Shown one piece after another: positions 53,695 to 64,000 of a DNA stretch of 64,000 nt (its first letter is position 1; every line of letters begins with the position of its first letter). The notes below the pieces were generated by a model. It saw nothing but the letters and a program-made list of their open reading frames with translations, made no database searches and was not told where the DNA came from. The translations under genes were made by a program, and so were the position numbers. Origin of the DNA: Sulfurospirillaceae bacterium (GTDB taxonomy: Bacteria; Campylobacterota; Campylobacteria; Campylobacterales; Sulfurospirillaceae); assembly GCA_028684065.1 (NCBI GenBank), contig JAQUGO010000002.1, positions 1 to 64,000 on the forward strand, in the 5' to 3' direction.

Positions 53695-55179
53695 TCATTC
53701 ACACACTTTTCTTAATTTCCCCAATACTTTCACCATCGCCAAAGTATCGAGTTCACAGTACTTCAACAACTGTTCTCGCACTTTCATTTGTTCTTCCAAA
53801 CTCTTACCATATAAAGAGGCAAAGGCGTTCATAGCATCACCGCCATTTTGGATGCCATCAAGTTTTTTATAGGCGAGTTCCATCTCAGGTACAAGCGCAG
53901 GAAGGACGTATTTGATGGAGTAACTACCTTGCATGACTGGGGTGACGTAGTGTCCTTTTTGGAAAGGAAGCATCAAATCTTTGATGGTGTCGTGTAGGTG
54001 CATAAGCCTTACATGTAAGTCCGGAAACAGCTGCGCAAGTGAGGCGATGACGCCTTTTTCGAAGCTCATATTGTATGCCAAAATGTTTACATGTAAAGGT
54101 ATATCTTCGACCAATTTCTCCGCCAAAGTGCGTCTTGGGTCGCTTCCTGTCTCAGCTAAAAATGCTTTATGCTCCAATGTGCCATCACGGTGTTCTACAT
54201 GTAAGGAGTATTGAAACGGTATTTGTTTGTAAGGGCTGACACCGTTCCACTCTGGCACGGCTTGTTGAAAGGTCTCAAAGTCAAGATGATAGATCGGATA
54301 CGTGAGGGTTTCTAAAAACTCAGCGATTGCGGCATGGTCGATGAACGTGTGTTGCTTTTTCCAGTTCTCGACCTTTTGCCACTGCAAAGGTGTCATCGCA
54401 AAGTCTTCGGGGATGTCTTCGATAGCCACGATATTTTTGGCATAAAGCTCTTGTTGTTTTTTACTGCCAAGGTTGAAGATATTGAAGATGCTGTACTCTG
54501 GGATATTTCGCTGAACTTTCCAACAATACGCCTTTGCATCGCACTCGTACGGGTCATTGCACTGTTTGCCAATGTCGATGTTTGGCTCATGAAATTTATC
54601 GTCTAAATACGCCTCAAACGCTTCAAGTTTTGCAGGGATAGAGCCTTGCAAATCTCGCACCTCATCTGTGACATCGACCACCACAAAAAGTTTTTCAAGT
54701 TCCAACGCTTCTTCTCGCACATAACTAGAGTTAATATGCACCACATGACACGCCCCAACCCTAAAACCAAGGGCTTCTAAAACATACAGCTGAATGGAAA
54801 TATCATGCAGATAGATAGGCTTCACATCGGTGGAACTCTTCACTTCATACAGCTCTAAGCCAAGAGGCGTTTGGCGCAAGATGTCCACCATCACCACGAT
54901 GCCCTCGTAAATAAACGTCGCCTCGTAGATGTTTTCCACACCCTCATCAAAATACGTTTTTGTAAGCCTCGCCATGCTTTTAAAATCGTGTGCATCAAAA
55001 GGTATCTCACGCCCATTTGGAAACAACTCACACGCCAAATCCCCCACAACATTACCCGTTTCAAACCGTGCTTTAGCACTGGCATCGGGCGGGCTCAATT
55101 CCTCTGGCTTGTACTTTTTCAGCCAAAGGGACTTTGGGCATTGAATGGCTCGGGTGTAGAGGGATTTTGAGAGGGTCAT
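53695..55179 (-). CDS. DUF2779-domain protein (Cas4/RecB-like PD-(D/E)xK N-terminus plus RNase H-like C-terminus)
   Basis: LELYEVKSSTDVK; Cys cluster KQCNDPYECDAKAYCW; YHLDFETFQQAVPEWNGVSPYKQIPFQYSLH. Confidence 0.8.
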   Translation of the reverse strand: MTLSKSLYTRAIQCPKSLWLKKYKPEELSPPDASAKARFETGNVVGDLACELFPNGREIPFDAHDFKSMARLTKTYFDEGVENIYEATFIYEGIVVMVDILRQTPLGLELYEVKSSTDVKPIYLHDISIQLYVLEALGFRVGACHVVHINSSYVREEALELEKLFVVVDVTDEVRDLQGSIPAKLEAFEAYLDDKFHEPNIDIGKQCNDPYECDAKAYCWKVQRNIPEYSIFNIFNLGSKKQQELYAKNIVAIEDIPEDFAMTPLQWQKVENWKKQHTFIDHAAIAEFLETLTYPIYHLDFETFQQAVPEWNGVSPYKQIPFQYSLHVEHRDGTLEHKAFLAETGSDPRRTLAEKLVEDIPLHVNILAYNMSFEKGVIASLAQLFPDLHVRLMHLHDTIKDLMLPFQKGHYVTPVMQGSYSIKYVLPALVPEMELAYKKLDGIQNGGDAMNAFASLYGKSLEEQMKVREQLLKYCELDTLAMVKVLGKLRKVCE

Positions 55180-55180
55180 G

Positions 55181-56185
55181 TTATTTATTTTCCACCTCTA
55201 GCAATAGTTTGTCAAAATCACTCCTAAAAAGTCTATCTTGAACCACACGGTATTTTTCAAATTCGCTCAAAGCTTTTTCATCGGCTATTTTTTTAGTGAT
55301 TTGCCCTGCATCGTGCAAAATCTCTCTATCATCAAACTCCAAAAAGGCATCGAGTCTTTTAGCCCAATCGTCCATGCTCATAGGAATATTTCGTTTGGCT
55401 CTACTTTCTGCAAGGTCTAAAAAAGCATTGACAATTCGCCCAAGAGAGTCAAGTTCTTCTTTTGAGAGATAGTTTTTTGCTACAGTGACATCAGATTTCA
55501 GTACCTTTCCACTAGGTGCATTTTCCCAAGACGTTAGCCCCATATATTCTTTCTCACTATCTGCTCTATTGTGGATGAGTTCCGCCGCCGTATGTCCGTG
55601 AATGGCAAAATGAAGTTTGTTCTGCACCTTTGCAAAAAACGTTTTGGTTGTCTCGTCGTCTTTGTTGTAGTCCACACTTGTGGCATAAATATCGGTAATC
55701 TTTTGGTAAAACATCCGCTCACTCAGTCGTATCTCTCGTATCTCTTCTAAGAGCTTATCAAAATAGTTTTGTCCTAAAAACGAACCGTTTTCAAGTCGCT
55801 TTTTATCAAGCACAAACCCTTTAATGGCAAACTCTTTCAGTACGCTTGTCGCCCACTGTCTAAACTGTGTCGCTTTTTTGGAGTTTACTCTATATCCTAC
55901 GGAGATGATGGCATCGAGGTTATAGTATTTTGTGTTATAGGTTTTACCATCATTGGCAGTATGTCGGAATTCCCGACATACTGATTTTTCAACTAACTCT
56001 TCACTTTCAAATATATTTTTAAGATGCTCAATTATAGTTGTTCGACCTTTATCAAAAAGCTGGGCTATCATCGTTTGAGTAAGCCAAACGGACTCTTCAA
56101 AAACTTTTACCTCGATGCTGTTTTCTCCACTTTGTGAGGTAAATATCAAAAATTCAGCAGTCGAGTTTCTTATGAGTTTATCCAT
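55181..56185 (-). CDS. RhuM-family protein
   Basis: EVKVFEESVWLTQTMIAQLFDKGRTTIIEHLKNIFESEEL...YYNLDAIISVGYRVNSKKATQFRQWATSVLKEFAIKGFVLDKKRL. Confidence 0.85.
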   Translation of the reverse strand: MDKLIRNSTAEFLIFTSQSGENSIEVKVFEESVWLTQTMIAQLFDKGRTTIIEHLKNIFESEELVEKSVCREFRHTANDGKTYNTKYYNLDAIISVGYRVNSKKATQFRQWATSVLKEFAIKGFVLDKKRLENGSFLGQNYFDKLLEEIREIRLSERMFYQKITDIYATSVDYNKDDETTKTFFAKVQNKLHFAIHGHTAAELIHNRADSEKEYMGLTSWENAPSGKVLKSDVTVAKNYLSKEELDSLGRIVNAFLDLAESRAKRNIPMSMDDWAKRLDAFLEFDDREILHDAGQITKKIADEKALSEFEKYRVVQDRLFRSDFDKLLLEVENK

Positions 56186-56224
56186 CTATCTTAGCCTTTT
56201 ATTCATGTGTAATATTCTTTTTAG

Positions 56225-56308
56225 CAACTATTTTACTCTTCATCGCTCAATGGCTTTGAAAAAATTTCAATATGAAATGCCTTACAACGCAACAATCCAC
56301 ACGCTAAA
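56225..56308. repeat. Duplicated 84-bp upstream module, copy A (upstream of the RhuM gene)
   Basis: About 10 mismatches by eye against 57203-57286; contains ATTTCA-ATA-TGAAAT. Confidence 0.8.
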
Positions 56309-56385
56309 GCCCATCGTTTTTTTTACATGTAAGAATCAAAAAATAGCCTGTCACATTTTTCTTCTTACATGTAAACACACTTTAC

Positions 56386-57186
56386 TCATTTTATCAGCCT
56401 ACTAACCACGTTATCGGTTAATATCTGCATCTGTTGGATAGCAATTGTATTGAGCTTTTGAAGCCTCTCTTTTTGCCCTAATCCTTCTTGGATAAATAGC
56501 GCATTAAGTGTTTCTAGATTTGCCAAACAGACAAGCTGGCTGACATCGGCATCGTCGCGGATATTGCCTTTTCTCTCAGGATTTGCATCACGCCACATTT
56601 TTGCACTCATGCCAAAAAGTGCTACATTTAAGATGTCAGCTTCACTGGCATAGACATGGCTAATTTGTTGAGGCGTAAGAGTTTTTGGTATGAGATTTAT
56701 CTGAATTGCATCGGTGTGAATGCGGTAATTAATCTTGGTGAGATTCCTTCTGATATCCCAACCCAACTGTTTTTGCTCATCATCTTTGAGTCTTTGAAAC
56801 TCTTTAATGAGATAGAGTTTAAACTTGACCGAAATCCACGATGCAAACTCAAAGGCGATGTCTTTATGAGCATATGTGCCACCGTATCTGCCTGATTTTG
56901 AGACGATACCAATGGCATTGGTAGCTTCAATCCACTTTTGAGGACGCAGGGTAAAGCTGTTGAGTCCGGCTTCTTTTCTAAACCGGTCGAATTCGACCGG
57001 TTTAAAATTTGGATTGTAAAGATGCTCCCAAATACCTAGAAATTCTATGGTATTTCGGTTGCGTAGCCAATTACGAATAATTTCATTGGCTTCGCTGTCT
57101 TCTTTGTACTTTGCGATGTCTGTCAGGGAGATATAATCATCTTTATTGATTGCTATGCTTTGATCAAAAACAGTTATATTTGCCAT
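56386..57186 (-). CDS. KilA-N domain-containing protein
   Basis: IAINKDDYISLTDIAKYK...IIRNWLRNRNTIEFLGIWEHLYNPNFK...KWIEATNAIGIVSKSGRYGGTYAHKDIAFEFASWIS. Confidence 0.88.
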   Translation of the reverse strand: MANITVFDQSIAINKDDYISLTDIAKYKEDSEANEIIRNWLRNRNTIEFLGIWEHLYNPNFKPVEFDRFRKEAGLNSFTLRPQKWIEATNAIGIVSKSGRYGGTYAHKDIAFEFASWISVKFKLYLIKEFQRLKDDEQKQLGWDIRRNLTKINYRIHTDAIQINLIPKTLTPQQISHVYASEADILNVALFGMSAKMWRDANPERKGNIRDDADVSQLVCLANLETLNALFIQEGLGQKERLQKLNTIAIQQMQILTDNVVSRLIK

Positions 57187-57202
57187 GTTTTACCTTTTTT
57201 AA

Positions 57203-57286
57203 CAACTACTTTACTATTAATTGTTCAATTTCTTTGAAAAAATTTCAATTTGAAATGCTTTACAATGCAACAATCCACACGCTAAA
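57203..57286. repeat. Duplicated 84-bp upstream module, copy B (upstream of the KilA-N gene)
   Basis: See copy A; contains ATTTCA-ATT-TGAAAT. Confidence 0.8.
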
Positions 57287-57391
57287 TTCCCCACAACATT
57301 ACCCGTCTCAAACCGTGTTTTGGCACTGGCATCTGGTGGAATTAAAACCTCTGGTGTACTTTTTCAGCCAAAGGGATTTTGAGAGGGTCAT
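57275..57391 (-). pseudogene. 5'-end remnant of a DUF2779 gene
   Basis: Matches the 5' end of 53695..55179 (ccacaacattacccgt.tcaaaccgtg...ctttttcagccaaaggg...attttgagagggtcatgttat) with an internal deletion and frameshift. Confidence 0.8.
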
Positions 57392-57401
57392 GTTATGTTA
57401 T

Positions 57402-58262
57402 TCATTCGATTTTATATCCTGGAGGAATTTTAAAGACTTTAGACGTAATTTTTTGTTGAGCTTGAATTAATTCATTAACGGGTAAATGCACTACTTGAGT
57501 TGCAAATAAATCAGCGCCTTGATTTCTAAAAATCATTCTTTTGTAACTATCACTATATGGAGAAAACACCAATGAGTCCCCGAACTTTCCGGTATTGCAA
57601 ATTAGGACATTACACATCACTAATCTAGCAATTCCTTCAGCTAATGAAAAAAAAGAATTCGTATCTTGATTGTATGCAATAATAATCATATGTTGAACTT
57701 TTCCTTTGTACGCAACATATCGTTCTATATCATAAAAATCTGCACAAATTGCAAAACCTATTTTCCCATACTCACCAGAATCAATCAAATACATATTTTC
57801 GTCAGAATCAAACGTAAAGTCTTTAGTTGAATATTCATTAATTGTTTTTTTTTCAGCATTTGCAGGATATTTTTTACCTAATAATCGAATAGTAGTTGAA
57901 GATGATTTCATATCTTCATTCCATTTATTTGGGACAATTAAAATTGCATTATTCTTAACTTTTTTTTCTTTGTTTACATCCCAGTCTAGTCCAGCTATTA
58001 CAACAGCATTCATTTCCTGAGCAAGTTTTCTAAGTTCATATTGATACCCATTTGGAACTGTAAGTTCGGGCATTACAATAATATCTGGCTTTGTATGATG
58101 ATTATATAGTTTATGAAATCCTTTTTTCATTTCTTGCCAAATATAATTTTCTGCTTCTTCTTTCATTCGCAAAGTTATATTTTCCCTAGGCCCCCAAGCA
58201 ATGTCATTATCAAGATTTGTTTGAATAAATCCTATTTTCAAATACTCAGTCATTACTTTCAC
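57402..58262 (-). CDS. Nitrilase / carbon-nitrogen hydrolase-family protein (putative RT-associated)
   Basis: Candidate catalytic Glu in IVMPELTVP, Cys in IGFAICADFYDIE, Lys-rich segment RLLGKKYPANAEKK; start overlaps the RT stop by 17 bp. Confidence 0.8.
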   Translation of the reverse strand: MKVMTEYLKIGFIQTNLDNDIAWGPRENITLRMKEEAENYIWQEMKKGFHKLYNHHTKPDIIVMPELTVPNGYQYELRKLAQEMNAVVIAGLDWDVNKEKKVKNNAILIVPNKWNEDMKSSSTTIRLLGKKYPANAEKKTINEYSTKDFTFDSDENMYLIDSGEYGKIGFAICADFYDIERYVAYKGKVQHMIIIAYNQDTNSFFSLAEGIARLVMCNVLICNTGKFGDSLVFSPYSDSYKRMIFRNQGADLFATQVVHLPVNELIQAQQKITSKVFKIPPGYKIE

Positions 58263-61200
58263 CTTGTTGAAAAATATCTTTTTTAATTTTATTCAAGCTA
58301 ATAGGCACAAGATAACGGGCATTATCTTTAAATACATATTTGTTTTCTTCTACCAATCGTATTGCATTATTAATAGCATCACGTAATTCATACACAGTAT
58401 AAAAAATCAATTCATCTTTTTCATCATTATCAAAATCTGAGTCATACTCAAAAGGGTAGGACTTAAATTTACGTGTTTCTCTTTTTCTTTTAGAAAGGCT
58501 ACTTTCAATTATTTCAGCTGTATACGAAGATATAGGATATTTTTCCAGTTTAGAAAGGAAGTACCCTAGATTAAATAATTGCGTACTTGGTAGAAACATT
58601 GCATTTGGCAACCATCTTGTTTGAGTCACTAATTGAAACATTAAAATTCCAATTGCAAATATTTTACGTTCTTCTTGATGTGTAGATTCAATAAAATCAG
58701 AAAAATATCTATTGTCAATTATTTCTTCACAATCTATCATATTAATTTCATCATCCTTTTGCAAGACTATATTGTAAGGGAATGAGGTAAAAATTTTATC
58801 AGGACTTTTTACATCTTCGATATTTACATTACAATATCTATCAAGTATTTTTTTGATATATCCTAGAATTTTTAATTCTTTATCCTGTTGAAAATCCTTA
58901 TTTTTTAAGAAATCTAAAATAAATGTTTGTGATTCTTTAGCTTTCATATATTTTACATATTTTAATGCATCTATATTTACGATAACATCTTTAGAAAAAT
59001 TCACACTTCTATTCTCAAATACTTTATACCACCATGAAAAAGCAAGATATGAATTATTTTTTTGCTGTAAAAGTTTTTTAATTCCATTATCATTTATTGA
59101 ATCTGGGTATAAAGCAGCAACAGCAGTGAATGCGAAGTTATTTTCAATATTTGCACTTTCTAAATAAAGCTTAGCTATAGATAAATGATTATTTTCATTT
59201 TGACTTGAAAATTTTTCAATTAAACTCCAAATAATCTTATCTGCATCTAAATTTTTATTTTCTAGATATTCAATAGGTGAATTATTCCAATCTATAAGTT
59301 CAAAATTATTTATAAGGGTATCACTATTTTCAAGCTTTAGTTTGTTGACTATATTGTCATTTAATTCATTTAAGAGAAAAAGTATCGTGCCAATTGTAGT
59401 TTTTAAATATTCTTGTGATTGCTTAAAATAATATGTCTGATCGCTTCCTGGAAGTATCTTTTTTAAAAAATTTGGACTCAAGATTTGCCTAAAATAACTA
59501 CATTTTCGATTTATCTCTCTATAAGAAAGTTGTGTATTTTGCAGTAATTTATAAACACGTATTAAAGAATGTATTAATAAATCATAAAAAAAAGTTTTGA
59601 TATAAATATTAGATACTTCATTAATAATCTTGGATTCTTTCATTTCATTTACTAAATCCCAAATTGTTATAAGTTCATTTTTATAATGGGTATCTTTGAT
59701 TTCTATTTCTGAAAAGCCATTTTTTTCACAAAACAGCAGAGCATTTTTCCACAATCTTAATTTTTCAGGATGCTTATGGATAGCATAAATCAGAAGTTTA
59801 AATATTCGTCTTCTATCTTCTTGAATATTCTGTTCTAAGTCATTCTTTGTTTGTACCAAATCTTTATTTAACTGTTCCACTTTTTTATCATTTTTATCTT
59901 TATTTAACTGTTCAAATAATTTTCTTTTTTTGAGATATATTTCAGAAAAATCATGATTTTTTCTGGATGTCAATAATGCCAATCTTGAAGCAGCATACGA
60001 AACTCTAGTGTCTTTTCTAATTTCATCATCAGGAAAGTCAGTAATTAGTAAATGCTCTAAATCACCCAAAACTCGTTTTCCTTCAGCTTCATCCAATAAA
60101 TCAAATGGAGTATGGTTTATCATAGACATTTTTTCAAGTGTCAAATTCATTAGCGTAGATGGGTAGTGAGGATCTAACCTCATTTCGTGAATTGCTTTTT
60201 CTCTCAATTCCTCTAACTTATCATTAGTTTGTCCACTCTTCGGATTGAATTTTTTGTCTAAATATTCTGCATATTCATCTGGTTTTGTTTTCTTCCAATT
60301 TATTTCAATACATGATCGGCCTGATGAATCCTTAAAATGCGTTTCAAGTAATGATTTATATTGTTCAACCCAATTAACGAGATTGTCCACATTAGTAGAT
60401 AAAAAAGTATGATCATCCACAAATCTAAAATGTGCAATTTCTTTTTTTTCTTCAATGAGTATATTAGCCTCAATATCAACTTTAAGCATAGCGATATTTG
60501 AAAGAAATCCAGCACTAAATAATCCTGTTGGGATACCATTGTAAATTAAATCTTTTGCACCCAAACCAATGATCTCAAAATATTTATCATCTAAATGTTC
60601 TAGCCCATGATATGAAATTTTAAATTTCAATAATAATGATATAAGATTTTTCAACTTGTGGGAATCTGTATAATCTTCTTTTAGTTTAACTCCAAAATTT
60701 TCAAAATTTTGTTCAATTATTTCAACTTTCGCACTGGGATAAAACTTTGTTAAATCAATACTACACCAATATAAATCAGATTGGTTTTTTTTCCAATAGT
60801 TTGGTTCTTTATATCTTACTTTATGTGTTTTATTTAGATGATTATTTTCTTCAATATTATCTTTCTCTTCTTTATTTAAAGTGCCTTTGTTGCTGGTCAT
60901 AAGTTTTGCTGTGAGATAAATATCTTTCCTAAATCTTGGCCAGCTTTGCTGAAAACTTCTATATGCATTTGTTATTGTGTTACGATAAGGTCCATATCCC
61001 CATACTATTTTGCCATTTTTCTTTTTTTCTTTAGGGAACATACTAATATATAATCTATTTCCATAGCTCCAAAATGGCATTTGTTTATCATAATATCTAC
61101 CAATAATATTCATGACAGCTAACCAAACCACTTGATCTCTCACTGCAACCCAAAACATTTGACGACTCTGTGCTTCGCCCTTTTCATCTTGTCCTTTTGG

Positions 61201-61413
61201 AAAAAAAATAGGTTGTAAAGGAGTTAGCGTATAATTTTCTTGTTGAATTTCTTGTACTATTTTTTTTAACTCGTTTTCATAATTTGCTGAGAAAGAAGCA
61301 AGCTCTAATTGATCATACCAATGTTCATGTTTTTGATAAAAAGATTTTGCTTTTTCCCATGCCCAGTGAAGATTTTCTAATTGAACAATTTCCGCAATAA
61401 TAGATTGGTTCAT
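58246..61413 (-). CDS. UG/Abi-type reverse transcriptase (DRT-like), 1055 aa with a long C-terminal extension
   Basis: RT motifs: SYGNRLY, WCSIDLTKFYPSAKVE, NGIPTGLFSAGFLSNIAM, FRFVDDHTFLST (FVDD); about 600-aa helical C-terminal region. Confidence 0.88.
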   Translation of the reverse strand: MNQSIIAEIVQLENLHWAWEKAKSFYQKHEHWYDQLELASFSANYENELKKIVQEIQQENYTLTPLQPIFFPKGQDEKGEAQSRQMFWVAVRDQVVWLAVMNIIGRYYDKQMPFWSYGNRLYISMFPKEKKKNGKIVWGYGPYRNTITNAYRSFQQSWPRFRKDIYLTAKLMTSNKGTLNKEEKDNIEENNHLNKTHKVRYKEPNYWKKNQSDLYWCSIDLTKFYPSAKVEIIEQNFENFGVKLKEDYTDSHKLKNLISLLLKFKISYHGLEHLDDKYFEIIGLGAKDLIYNGIPTGLFSAGFLSNIAMLKVDIEANILIEEKKEIAHFRFVDDHTFLSTNVDNLVNWVEQYKSLLETHFKDSSGRSCIEINWKKTKPDEYAEYLDKKFNPKSGQTNDKLEELREKAIHEMRLDPHYPSTLMNLTLEKMSMINHTPFDLLDEAEGKRVLGDLEHLLITDFPDDEIRKDTRVSYAASRLALLTSRKNHDFSEIYLKKRKLFEQLNKDKNDKKVEQLNKDLVQTKNDLEQNIQEDRRRIFKLLIYAIHKHPEKLRLWKNALLFCEKNGFSEIEIKDTHYKNELITIWDLVNEMKESKIINEVSNIYIKTFFYDLLIHSLIRVYKLLQNTQLSYREINRKCSYFRQILSPNFLKKILPGSDQTYYFKQSQEYLKTTIGTILFLLNELNDNIVNKLKLENSDTLINNFELIDWNNSPIEYLENKNLDADKIIWSLIEKFSSQNENNHLSIAKLYLESANIENNFAFTAVAALYPDSINDNGIKKLLQQKNNSYLAFSWWYKVFENRSVNFSKDVIVNIDALKYVKYMKAKESQTFILDFLKNKDFQQDKELKILGYIKKILDRYCNVNIEDVKSPDKIFTSFPYNIVLQKDDEINMIDCEEIIDNRYFSDFIESTHQEERKIFAIGILMFQLVTQTRWLPNAMFLPSTQLFNLGYFLSKLEKYPISSYTAEIIESSLSKRKRETRKFKSYPFEYDSDFDNDEKDELIFYTVYELRDAINNAIRLVEENKYVFKDNARYLVPISLNKIKKDIFQQGESND

Positions 61414-62417
61414 ATAATACGCCCTTTTATTACTTCATTTAAATCATTGTATTGCTTAGGTATTTGTATACGCTTAATTGTTTTTATTTGGCTGAAAAAC
61501 CTTTGAATACTTTGGAAAAATTTTTCTCCACCTGCATCATTGTCTGGTGCAATATAAATATCATAATTCTTCAATATTGACACATATGAACTTTTAAAAT
61601 TTGATGCACCCATTATCCCAATTACATTCCAACCAAATTCTTTTGCTGAGAGCGCATCAGTTAATCCTTCTGTAATAACTACTTTTTCACCTACTTTTAG
61701 ATCTTTTAAAATTTGTTCATTAAATATTGTTGATTCTATGGAAGATAAGTTCATCCAACGAATTTTAGGATGGTCATAAAATCTTCCTTGTAAATAGTTT
61801 ATTTTATTTTCATGATTATAAAAAGGAAAAACAATAACATCTTGCCACCATATGGGTCTACTTTTCTGGTCATTATTAATCCATAATCCACATTGCACTA
61901 ATCTATCAATCCCCCACCGTTTTTTTGCTTCATTAAAAAATTCATTTGTTAACAGAATATCTCTAATATTGAAATATCTAAGAGTATCTTCATTTATATT
62001 TCGTGCTTTAAAATAGTCAATCGCTTTTTTACTTAACGTTGTATTATTAATTATCCACTCATATATTTCTGCGTTAGGTTGATACTCATTAGTTTCAATT
62101 TTTTTTATATCTTGTTTGAATACTTTCTTTTTTATACATTGATTTGAAGAATCATGAATAAATCGATCCATTAGCCATTGGCAAGCTTCTTGAAAATCAA
62201 CTCCGCCATATTCCATAATTAAATTAATCGGACCTCCACCAATTCCACAACCAAAACATTTGAATTTATTTTTTGAATACTGAAAAGAAAGACTAGGTGT
62301 TTTTGTATCATGTCCAGCAAAGCACATCGCCTTTGTATTTTTATTTATCTCTATCCCTAAGATTTGCGCTACTTCTTTGATGGGAATATTATTTAATAAT
62401 TCCGTATCATATTTCAT
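61410..62417 (-). CDS. DnaG-like primase: CHC2 zinc finger plus TOPRIM domain
   Basis: CFAGHDTKTPSLSF...KFKCFGCGIGGGPINLI (CHC2); VVITEGLTDALSAKEFGWNVIGIMGAS...IYIAPDNDAGGEKF (TOPRIM Glu and DxD); 335 aa. Confidence 0.9.
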   Translation of the reverse strand: MKYDTELLNNIPIKEVAQILGIEINKNTKAMCFAGHDTKTPSLSFQYSKNKFKCFGCGIGGGPINLIMEYGGVDFQEACQWLMDRFIHDSSNQCIKKKVFKQDIKKIETNEYQPNAEIYEWIINNTTLSKKAIDYFKARNINEDTLRYFNIRDILLTNEFFNEAKKRWGIDRLVQCGLWINNDQKSRPIWWQDVIVFPFYNHENKINYLQGRFYDHPKIRWMNLSSIESTIFNEQILKDLKVGEKVVITEGLTDALSAKEFGWNVIGIMGASNFKSSYVSILKNYDIYIAPDNDAGGEKFFQSIQRFFSQIKTIKRIQIPKQYNDLNEVIKGRII

Positions 62418-63147
62418 TTTTAAGAACTTTTGTACAACATTTTTTAAGTTCAGATAATGAAGAACAAATAGCTCTCAATTGTTCTTCATTAGATATTTCT
62501 CCATTTATTCCTTGAATCAATTTTTCAATAGGAAAAATAATTAGTCTAAATTTTTCACTTTTATAATTTTCTTCGAATTCATAATAAGATTTACAAATCC
62601 TTTTTCCATTTTCATGACTTATCATCATTTCTGCAATTTGCCGTTGTTGCAAGGAATAGATAGGAGTCATAAATGCTGTAGACCTAAGATTCACATTCAC
62701 GGAATGAATGGCATTAAAAAAATCTTTTTCATCTTTTTTTTCGTTAAAAATTTCATAGTTAATTTCTTCTTTTAAAACTTGTATCCAACACAAATATTGT
62801 GCAAAATAATAAAGTGAACTTGGCATATAATAGTTATATTCTAGTTCATCCTCCAGAAGAGCTTTCTTACCATTTTTATTAATAAAATAATCCAATCTAC
62901 CTATCAATCCATTGACTGAACTTAAAACAGGATTTGTCCATTTTTTTAGTTCTTCAAATTTTCTATTATCTTTTTCATACAATTTTTTAATTTCGTTTTT
63001 TTCATTTTCTAATTCTATCTTTAACTCATTTTTATATTTTTCTAATGTCATTTTTGATGCTGTATCTAAAATCTTTTTACCAAGAAAAACTACTCCTGTC
63101 GTAATAACTGATATGCTAGAAAAATAAACAATTATTTCTTGAATCAT
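62407..63147 (-). CDS. Membrane-anchored coiled-coil protein, first gene of the RT operon
   Basis: N-terminal TM MIQEIIVYFSSISVITTGVVFLGKKIL followed by a charged coiled coil; RBS taggagt; 11-bp overlap with the primase gene. Confidence 0.65.
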   Translation of the reverse strand: MIQEIIVYFSSISVITTGVVFLGKKILDTASKMTLEKYKNELKIELENEKNEIKKLYEKDNRKFEELKKWTNPVLSSVNGLIGRLDYFINKNGKKALLEDELEYNYYMPSSLYYFAQYLCWIQVLKEEINYEIFNEKKDEKDFFNAIHSVNVNLRSTAFMTPIYSLQQRQIAEMMISHENGKRICKSYYEFEENYKSEKFRLIIFPIEKLIQGINGEISNEEQLRAICSSLSELKKCCTKVLKNEI

Positions 63148-63168
63148 TATAATTACTCCTATTTAAAT

Positions 63169-64000
63169 TTAAAGTTCCACAACTCTCTCAAACATCTCTT
63201 TTATCTCCATTTCATGGCTTATCAAAAATATCTGTCTGTACTGTTCTTTTATGGTATGAAATGCTTCTAAGATTTCCATTCTTCGGTTTTCGTCTTGACT
63301 TCCAAAGACTTCGTCAAACGCTAAAAATCCCACGCTACTGGCACCGTTCAGTTCACTCAGTGTTTTAGAGATGGCGATACGAAGCACTAAGTTAGCAAGG
63401 TCTATCTCTCCGCCGCTGAAGCGTTCTATGGGGTAGCATTTGCCCTCGTCGTAGATGAAAAAGTCAAAGTCGTTGTTCACTTCGATGTATTGGTATTTGC
63501 CTTTGGTGATGGTGGCGTACATCTGCGAGGCGATTTGCGAGATGCGTGGGGCTATTTTTGAGTTGAGTTTGGTTTTAAACTCACTAAGGCTCAGTTTGAT
63601 TTTCTCATAGTCTTGCAAATCGTCTTTTTTACTCTGTACTTTTTTAAGTTGTATGTCGTTATTTTCCAGAGCGTTTTGCAAGGTTTTTATCTCGCCTTCA
63701 TTTTTGGCTATCTTTTCTTTTAGCTCTGAGATAACGCTGTATTGTTTCTCTTTTTGCTTTTGAAGTTCGTCGTATTCACTTTGTTTTGCGGTGTGTTTTG
63801 GCTCATCGTAGAGTGTTTTTTGCACTTCCAATTCTTTCTCTTTTGACTTTACATGTAAAGCTTCTGCACTTTTTACTGTAAGTGCCAAATCCTCTCTCAC
63901 GCCCTGCTCTCGTTTGAGTTCTGTTTCAAGACTTAGGACGGCTTCATACTTTGGTTTTAGCTCCAAAAAGCTTTTTTGTAGGCTTACATGTAAGGCTTCA
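63169..64000 (-). CDS. sbcC: SbcC/Rad50-like SMC ATPase (C-terminal part; 5' end beyond window)
   Basis: FSGGEIDLANLVLRIAISKTL, FLAFDEVFGSQDENRRMEILEAF, IFLISHEMEIKEMFERVVEL; coiled coil reads through toward the window edge. Confidence 0.82.
   Translation of the reverse strand, partial: EALHVSLQKSFLELKPKYEAVLSLETELKREQGVREDLALTVKSAEALHVKSKEKELEVQKTLYDEPKHTAKQSEYDELQKQKEKQYSVISELKEKIAKNEGEIKTLQNALENNDIQLKKVQSKKDDLQDYEKIKLSLSEFKTKLNSKIAPRISQIASQMYATITKGKYQYIEVNNDFDFFIYDEGKCYPIERFSGGEIDLANLVLRIAISKTLSELNGASSVGFLAFDEVFGSQDENRRMEILEAFHTIKEQYRQIFLISHEMEIKEMFERVVEL

What the first reader, a model, noticed from the sequence alone, without database searches (positions are those of the whole stretch)
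57402..63147. Four-gene operon: membrane coiled-coil protein + CHC2/TOPRIM primase + UG/Abi reverse transcriptase + nitrilase
Seen directly: four consecutive minus-strand genes with overlaps of 11, 4 and 17 bp, so they are likely translationally coupled. The RT has an intact FVDD box and SIDLTKFYPS motif. The primase has an intact CHC2 zinc finger, TOPRIM Glu and DxD. The nitrilase keeps its ICADFYD Cys motif. Established: DRT type 1 (UG1) defence RTs carry a fused nitrilase domain. Inference: this is a split DRT1-like architecture to which a dedicated primase has been added. The primase may supply RNA primers for RT-driven DNA synthesis, with the TM protein as membrane effector or anchor. I do not recall a described UG-RT plus DnaG-like primase system.
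Basis: partly seen in the sequence, partly recalled or inferred. Interest (0 to 1): 0.92.

Follow-up and report, generated by a model that had tools for sequence, protein, structure and literature searches.

The report
Primase–RT–nitrilase anti-phage operon (UG6 type)
A bacterium carries a rare phage-defence gene set in which a reverse transcriptase works next to its own DNA primase and a nitrilase; public defence databases already list each part, but nobody has shown how a reverse transcriptase and a DnaG-type primase cooperate.

Summary
In detail: four intact, overlapping minus-strand genes encode a one-helix membrane coiled-coil protein, a DnaG-like primase, a 1055-aa reverse transcriptase (RT) and a nitrilase. 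The claim that it is undescribed does not hold. PADLOC (2023) has DRT models for every part: RT_UG6 (440 bits), RTasNitrilase (317), RTasDnaG-like (295) and RTasTM (101). I found 13 further UG6 loci in five phyla. The nitrilase follows the RT in 13/13, the primase precedes it in 11/13, and the three genes have congruent distance matrices (r=0.88-0.95). The membrane gene is in none of the 13, so it is an accessory. Catalytic residues of RT, primase and nitrilase are invariant. The only PDB sequence match of the RT and of the nitrilase profile is DRT1 (9yfd). The operon fills a slot between sbcC and a DUF2779 nuclease gene. In related genomes the slot holds Gabija, Hachiman, Lamassu, OLD and Ppl homologues instead, which is strong context evidence for defence. 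Best reading: a three-gene relative of DRT1 with a nitrilase effector; the primase probably acts on the RT's DNA product. The primase's role is untested. Novelty: new member of a catalogued, experimentally uncharacterised kind.

The parts
62407..63147 (-). RTasTM-family protein, 246 aa: one N-terminal transmembrane helix then predicted coiled coil; first gene of the operon, 21 bp after the sbcC stop
   Evidence: PDLC03799, 101 bits; one TM helix; absent from 13 other UG6 genomes and from 284 other Campylobacterota
61410..62417 (-). DnaG-like primase, 335 aa: CHC2 zinc ribbon, RNA-polymerase core, TOPRIM; no helicase-binding domain
   Evidence: PDLC03800, 295 bits; invariant residues; 2au3, E 9e-26; model pLDDT 83; DnaG fold
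58246..61413 (-). UG6 reverse transcriptase, 1055 aa: RT domain in about the first 480 residues, then a long mainly helical C-terminal half
   Evidence: PDLC03782, 440 bits; only PDB sequence hit is DRT1 9yfd; D220, D333, D334 invariant
57402..58262 (-). stand-alone nitrilase, 286 aa (GTG start; ATG at 58253 possible), with E62-K126-E133-C169
   Evidence: PDLC03804, 317 bits; invariant residues; only PDB hit is the DRT1 nitrilase domain, E 1e-24
57269..57396 (-). decayed copy of the 5' end of the DUF2779 gene, directly after the nitrilase stop
   Evidence: repeats D2, D4, D5, 84-100% identical to 55022-55184
56386..57186 (-). KilA-N domain protein (PADLOC PDC-S22), probably a second cargo of the same slot
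   Evidence: 91-bp repeat D1 beside it
55181..56185 (-). RhuM-family protein (PADLOC PDC-S05), probably a second cargo of the same slot
53695..55179 (-). intact DUF2779 protein (predicted RNase H-like 3'-5' exonuclease with a PD-(D/E)XK-like N-terminal part); far end of the variable slot
   Evidence: family assignment in PMC3985635
63169..64000 (-). 3' part of sbcC; near end of the variable slot (sbcD and the rest of sbcC lie beyond the window)
   Evidence: (L007: sbcC 789 aa, sbcD 372 aa)

Best explanation
This is a defence-associated reverse transcriptase system of the UG6 kind with three core genes (primase, RT, nitrilase) and an accessory membrane protein. SHOWN: the three core genes are intact, overlap, keep their catalytic residues, are inherited together across five phyla, are nearest to DRT1 (RT, nitrilase) and DnaG (primase) among solved proteins, and sit in a slot that otherwise holds known anti-phage systems. 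INFERRED: as in DRT1, the RT makes non-genomic DNA without a dedicated RNA template, started either on a protein hydroxyl (Ser430 is a candidate) or on a short RNA laid down by the primase. The primase, which by homology needs single-stranded DNA as template, most likely primes that DNA for second-strand synthesis, or else primes exposed phage single-stranded DNA for the RT. The DNA or its protein adduct controls assembly of the nitrilase, which is released during phage replication and cuts a C-N bond in an essential metabolite, stopping growth. In this genome the TM protein would tether or report at the membrane.
For: PADLOC DRT models match all four proteins. Thirteen other UG6 loci from Campylobacterota, Bacteroidota, Verrucomicrobiota, Bacillota and Alphaproteobacteria: nitrilase downstream 13/13, primase upstream 11/13, mostly with overlapping genes. 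Distance matrices of the three proteins correlate at 0.88-0.95, 0 of 5000 permutations. Catalytic residues invariant. Only PDB sequence match of the RT profile and of the nitrilase profile is DRT1 9yfd. DRT1 is reported to need both RT and nitrilase residues for defence and to make template-free protein-primed DNA (PMC13275509). The slot between sbcC and DUF2779 holds OLD, Gabija, Hachiman, Lamassu and Ppl homologues in relatives and elsewhere in the same genome. No Rfam family matches the region and genes overlap, leaving little room for a template RNA. Operon G+C about 25-30% against about 38% around it and absence from all 23 searched congeners suggest acquisition.
Against: No experiment exists for any UG6 system in the papers held. 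RT sequence identity to a DRT1 RT is only about 18%, and the DRT1 priming serine is said not to be conserved in other class 3 DRTs (PMC13275509). The RT model is poor (pLDDT 55), so priming geometry could not be examined. Two UG6 loci lack the primase (L073, L082), so it is not indispensable everywhere. The TM gene is unique to this locus.
Confidence: 0.6

Rival explanations
1. Primase-first model: the DnaG-like primase senses phage replication by priming exposed phage single-stranded DNA, and the RT extends these RNA primers; the resulting DNA triggers the nitrilase. The RT would not be protein-primed.
For: The primase keeps the zinc ribbon and the full catalytic set, which a purely structural protein would not need. 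A phage single-strand helicase is required for DRT1 activity (PMC13275509). In L082 the gene before the RT is an Argonaute instead, another protein that handles short oligonucleotides.
Against: DRT1 and DRT5, the nearest tested relatives, are reported to be protein-primed. L073 keeps RT and nitrilase with no detectable primase. No helicase-interaction domain is present.
Confidence: 0.25
2. Two or more independent systems that happen to be neighbours in a defence island.
For: The locus is a cargo slot in which unrelated systems are stacked.
Against: Same three genes, same order and congruent histories in five phyla at different chromosomal places; gene overlaps.
Confidence: 0.04
3. A mobile or domesticated retroelement with no defence role (group II intron-like or DGR-like RT).
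For: Best Foldseek matches of the RT model are group II intron, G2L4 and DGR RTs, and a group II maturase model gives a weak hit.
Against: The hit is far below its cut-off (33 vs 300 bits), the RT_UG6 model scores 440 bits, and the site holds known defence systems in relatives.
Confidence: 0.05
4. The TM protein is the true toxic effector (pore or membrane disruptor) and the nitrilase is regulatory.
For: TM partners exist for some DRT1 systems (Drt1b, PMC13275509), and the RTasTM family was catalogued with RTs.
Against: TM gene in 0 of 13 other UG6 loci, nitrilase in 13 of 13 with an invariant tetrad.
Confidence: 0.06

Closest known systems
UG6 RT family with RTasDnaG-like, RTasNitrilase, RTasTM and RTasSbcB in PADLOC-DB (DRT set)
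   Same: All four window proteins match these models, and other UG6 loci carry RTasSbcB; this is the family the operon belongs to.
   Different: The models list parts, not a mechanism. The window protein is a divergent UG6 (440 bits against up to 1331 for alphaproteobacterial members) and combines the TM gene with the primase.
DRT1 (UG1), structure 9yfd
   Same: RT plus nitrilase with invariant catalytic residues; only PDB sequence hit for RT and nitrilase.
   Different: DRT1 is a single RT-nitrilase fusion without a primase; here the nitrilase is a separate protein and a DnaG-like primase precedes the RT. RT identity is about 18%.
DRT5 / UG5 RT-nitrilase
   Same: Homologous nitrilase (128 bits to the UG5-nitrilase model).
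   Different: Fused, no primase; the Leptospira relative L009 has a DEDDh exonuclease downstream.
UG29 (PADLOC model of 2280 positions)
   Same: Its N-terminal 290 positions match the window primase (87 bits) and later positions match RTs: primase and RT in one protein.
   Different: Fused; whether it has a nitrilase was not tested.
DRT7 / UG10 RT-primase-polymerase fusion
   Same: Couples an RT with a priming enzyme; described in preprints cited by PMC13213688.
   Different: That primase is of the archaeo-eukaryotic type (AE_Prim_S_like, PMC8934634), unrelated to DnaG; fused; no nitrilase named there.

Membership tests
UG6 DRT (PADLOC) | RT matches RT_UG6 better than any other RT model | tested here: met
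   440 bits, next best 53 bits
UG6 DRT (PADLOC) | RT catalytic Asp residues and the family motifs (WSYGNR, GIPTGL, AHFRFVDDH) kept | tested here: met
UG6 DRT (PADLOC) | RT-associated genes adjacent (DnaG-like primase, nitrilase) | tested here: met
UG6 DRT (PADLOC) | SbcB/DEDD exonuclease partner seen in many UG6 loci | tested here: inconclusive
   No SbcB-like gene directly beside the operon; a DUF2779 exonuclease and its 5' remnant lie downstream, but that gene is a constant of the slot
DRT1 (UG1) | RT and nitrilase fused in one chain | tested here: not met
   separate ORFs 58246-61413 and 57402-58262
DRT1 (UG1) | best match to Drt1a model | tested here: not met
   Drt1a 53 bits against RT_UG6 440
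DRT1 (UG1) | priming serine equivalent to S402 | tested here: inconclusive
   No alignable T-S-S motif; Ser430 is the only invariant S/T/Y between D334 and T469 in 12 UG6 RTs
[quoted passage not shown] nitrilase-dependent abortive infection | not testable with these tools
   needs biochemistry and phage assays
Group II intron RT / retron RT | passes the curated model or carries intron or msr/msd RNA | tested here: not met
   TIGR04416 33 bits against cut-off 300; no Rfam match
DnaG primase | CHC2 zinc ribbon, TOPRIM Glu and DxD | tested here: met
DnaG primase | C-terminal DnaB-binding domain | tested here: not met
   protein ends after TOPRIM
Nitrilase superfamily | Glu-Lys-Cys catalytic set (second Glu also kept) | tested here: met
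   E62, K126, E133, C169 invariant in nine homologues

The most novel reading that the evidence does not exclude
A DnaG-type primase and an RT cooperate to write double-stranded or RNA-primed DNA that licenses a nitrilase toxin. This would be a two-polymerase immune system in which the second strand or the primer comes from a replication-type primase; the nearest reported cases are the unrelated RT-AEP fusion DRT7 and the two-RT system DRT3.
Probability: 0.35. Interest if true: 0.75.

Novelty: new member of a known kind. Interest (0 to 1): 0.5.

Why it matters
UG6 is a DRT group whose parts are catalogued but for which I found no experimental work in the library. Its operon gives a clean, separable set of genes (primase, RT, effector) for asking how defence RTs start DNA synthesis and how that DNA controls a nitrilase; in DRT1 RT and nitrilase are fused in one chain, and no primase is present. 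The surrounding sbcDC-[cargo]-DUF2779 slot is also a ready-made place to find further defence systems in this genus.

Tried and rejected
(1) Three viral contigs protein scans and one genome contigs protein scan found nothing, because the automatic patterns fell outside conserved motifs; a hand-made motif GIPxxLxxAGF(h)xN solved this. (2) I considered feeding a masked alignment to steer the search (drafted) and dropped it in favour of real motifs. (3) Plasmid tblastn with RT, primase and TM: no hit; phage tblastn: nothing with the nitrilase, only one distant phage primase-helicase with the primase. (4) A dedicated template RNA: no Rfam match. (5) An RT tree with UG1/UG5 outgroups was dominated by long branches and not used for placement. 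(6) RT structure model too poor for mechanism. (7) The idea that DUF2779 is a specific fifth UG6 gene here was weakened: it closes the slot in every related copy whatever the cargo, though in the verrucomicrobial locus it directly follows the nitrilase. (8) I could not read the UG/Abi catalogue paper (gkac467; not held) and relied on PADLOC model names for what is catalogued.
Full report
WHAT IS THERE. The window ends with four minus-strand genes in the order TM/coiled-coil (62407-63147), DnaG-like primase (61410-62417), RT (58246-61413), nitrilase (57402-58262). The overlaps of 11, 4 and 17 bp are as reported. An ATG at 58253 is an alternative nitrilase start, which would shorten the last overlap to 8 bp. 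The first gene starts 21 bp after the stop of sbcC. G+C is about 25-30% across the operon against roughly 38% before it, and none of the 23 congeners searched has the RT, so it looks acquired.

FAMILY ASSIGNMENT. PADLOC matches all four proteins to models of its DRT set: RTasNitrilase 317 bits, RT_UG6 440 bits (next RT model 53 bits), RTasDnaG-like 295 bits, RTasTM 101 bits. Pfam and NCBIfam see only generic domains: CHC2, Toprim and DnaG core in the primase, RVT_1 just under cut-off in the RT, nothing convincing in the nitrilase. So the parts were already catalogued by 2023. A 2021 survey listed a nitrilase beside a UG6 RT and names dnaG among occasional RT neighbours (PMC8934634). The PADLOC UG29 model, 2280 positions long, begins with a region that matches this primase and continues with an RT region.

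CONSERVATION. A motif scan of one genome per species for 85,462 species found UG6 RTs in Maricaulis, Rhodospirillales, Mesorhizobium, Novosphingobium, Tardiphaga, Bradyrhizobium, a further alphaproteobacterium, Verrucomicrobia, Bacteroidales, Flavobacteriia, Acetivibrio and Arcobacter caeni; all non-Campylobacterota genomes were confirmed with the UG6 HMM, A. caeni. One more came from an HMM search of the order of one Bradyrhizobium locus. HMM sampling shows rarity: 2/398 Campylobacterota, 1/297 Bacteroidota, 2/347 in that order, 1/251 in the order of Novosphingobium, 1/243 Verrucomicrobiota, the single hits being the centre genomes themselves. Of 13 loci with wider flanks (L006, L071-L075, L077-L082, L117; L076 is fragmentary), the nitrilase follows the RT in 13 and the primase precedes it in 11; neighbouring genes overlap by 4-67 bp in most. 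Some loci are damaged: the RT is split in L072 and L079, and an IS has cut the primase of L117. The two without a primase are L073 (none detectable) and L082, where a prokaryotic Argonaute gene overlaps the RT instead. Since loci were picked by an RT motif or RT model only, the neighbour counts are not biased by the neighbours, though the sample is not exhaustive. Pairwise distance matrices correlate at 0.88 (RT-primase), 0.93 (RT-nitrilase) and 0.93 (primase-nitrilase) over nine loci, and RT with nitrilase at 0.95 over twelve, with no permutation of 5000 reaching the value: the three genes are inherited together.

ACCESSORY GENES. The TM family is absent from the other 13 UG6 genomes (one remote 26-bit match on another contig of the verrucomicrobial genome) and from 284 other Campylobacterota: an accessory, not core. 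A DEDD-type 3'-5' exonuclease gene is adjacent in 8 of 13: SbcB-like (PADLOC RTasSbcB) in L071 and L073 (the L074 and L117 homologues were identified by their shared N-terminal sequence only), DEDDh in L072, L075 and L081, and DUF2779 in L077. DUF2779 is placed among 3'-5' exonucleases with a PD-(D/E)XK-like domain by PMC3985635.

CATALYSIS. RT D220, D333 and D334 are invariant in 12 UG6 RTs. Primase zinc ligands C32/H36/C54/C57 and E250/D292/D294 are invariant in seven; its model (pLDDT 83) matches DnaG polymerase domains (2au3, 4e2k) and lacks the DnaB-binding domain. Nitrilase E62, K126, E133 and C169 are invariant in nine. The RT profile and the nitrilase profile each have one PDB sequence match, the DRT1 structure 9yfd. 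The RT model is too poor (pLDDT 55) to say more than 'RT fold'.

GENOMIC SETTING. In this genus sbcD-sbcC-[cargo]-DUF2779 recurs as one tight co-directional block. sbcC is 93-96% and DUF2779 90-92% identical between copies (sbcC 43% in the block on another contig of the same genome), but the cargo is different each time. PADLOC names the cargoes OLD (L118), a weak HNH-effector match (L119), Ppl (L120), a weak KAP-NTPase match of QatA/PifA type (L121), Gabija GajA in two frames (L122), Hachiman (L123) and Lamassu (L124). The UG6 operon occupies this slot. Directly after the nitrilase stop lies a decayed 5' copy of DUF2779 (57269-57396; 84-100% identical to 55022-55184), then KilA-N and RhuM genes (both PADLOC defence candidates) and the intact DUF2779. 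The simplest history is that the UG6 operon abutted DUF2779 and a second cargo was later inserted. This is the strongest context evidence that the operon is a defence system.

MECHANISM. [quoted passage not shown]). Inference for UG6: the same logic split over separate proteins. Ser430 is the only S/T/Y invariant in all 12 RTs between D334 and T469 and is the candidate priming residue; this is a prediction, not a result. The primase could prime the RT's DNA for second-strand synthesis, as in the duplex-making DRT3 and DRT7 systems described in PMC13213688, or prime phage single-stranded DNA. The replacement of the primase by an Argonaute in one locus fits a role in handling short oligonucleotides, but is a single case. 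The recurrent exonuclease may trim the DNA product.

VERDICT. A real, intact, acquired UG6 DRT with a TM accessory gene. New member of a catalogued but experimentally uncharacterised kind; the primase question is open and testable.

Noticed in passing
window 53695-64000; L118-L124: In this genus sbcD-sbcC-[cargo]-DUF2779 is a modular block whose ends are 90-96% identical while the cargo between them differs in each copy (OLD, Ppl, Gabija, Hachiman, Lamassu, HNH and KAP proteins, UG6). Some genomes, including the window's own, hold two blocks. Searches of the held papers for DUF2779 and for SbcCD defence hotspots found no description of it.
   Followed up: partly
L082 5985-12022 (Flavobacteriia): A prokaryotic Argonaute gene overlaps a UG6 RT gene by about 13 bp, followed by the nitrilase; no primase. 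An Argonaute appears to take the primase's place. SIR2-like, HerA-like and DUF4062 genes lie upstream.
   Followed up: partly
L072 12035-12925, L075 12955-13845, L081 12901-13788: A DEDDh exonuclease gene lies directly upstream of the UG6 primase in three alphaproteobacterial loci; it matches PADLOC DEDDh but hardly RTasSbcB, so it is a different partner from the SbcB-like one.
   Followed up: partly
L009 5768-6484 (Leptospira noguchii plasmid): A DEDDh exonuclease gene sits 12 bp after a UG5-nitrilase-like RT, so exonuclease partners may extend to other RT-nitrilase systems.
   Followed up: no
window 56218-56308 and 57196-57286: Two 91-bp direct repeats (88% identical) lie upstream of the RhuM and KilA-N genes; they may mark recombination joints of slot cargo.
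   Followed up: no
L077 6746-9165 (Verrucomicrobia): A DUF2779 gene follows the UG6 nitrilase by 3 bp although no sbcDC is seen upstream, so the DUF2779 link is not limited to the Campylobacterota slot.
   Followed up: no
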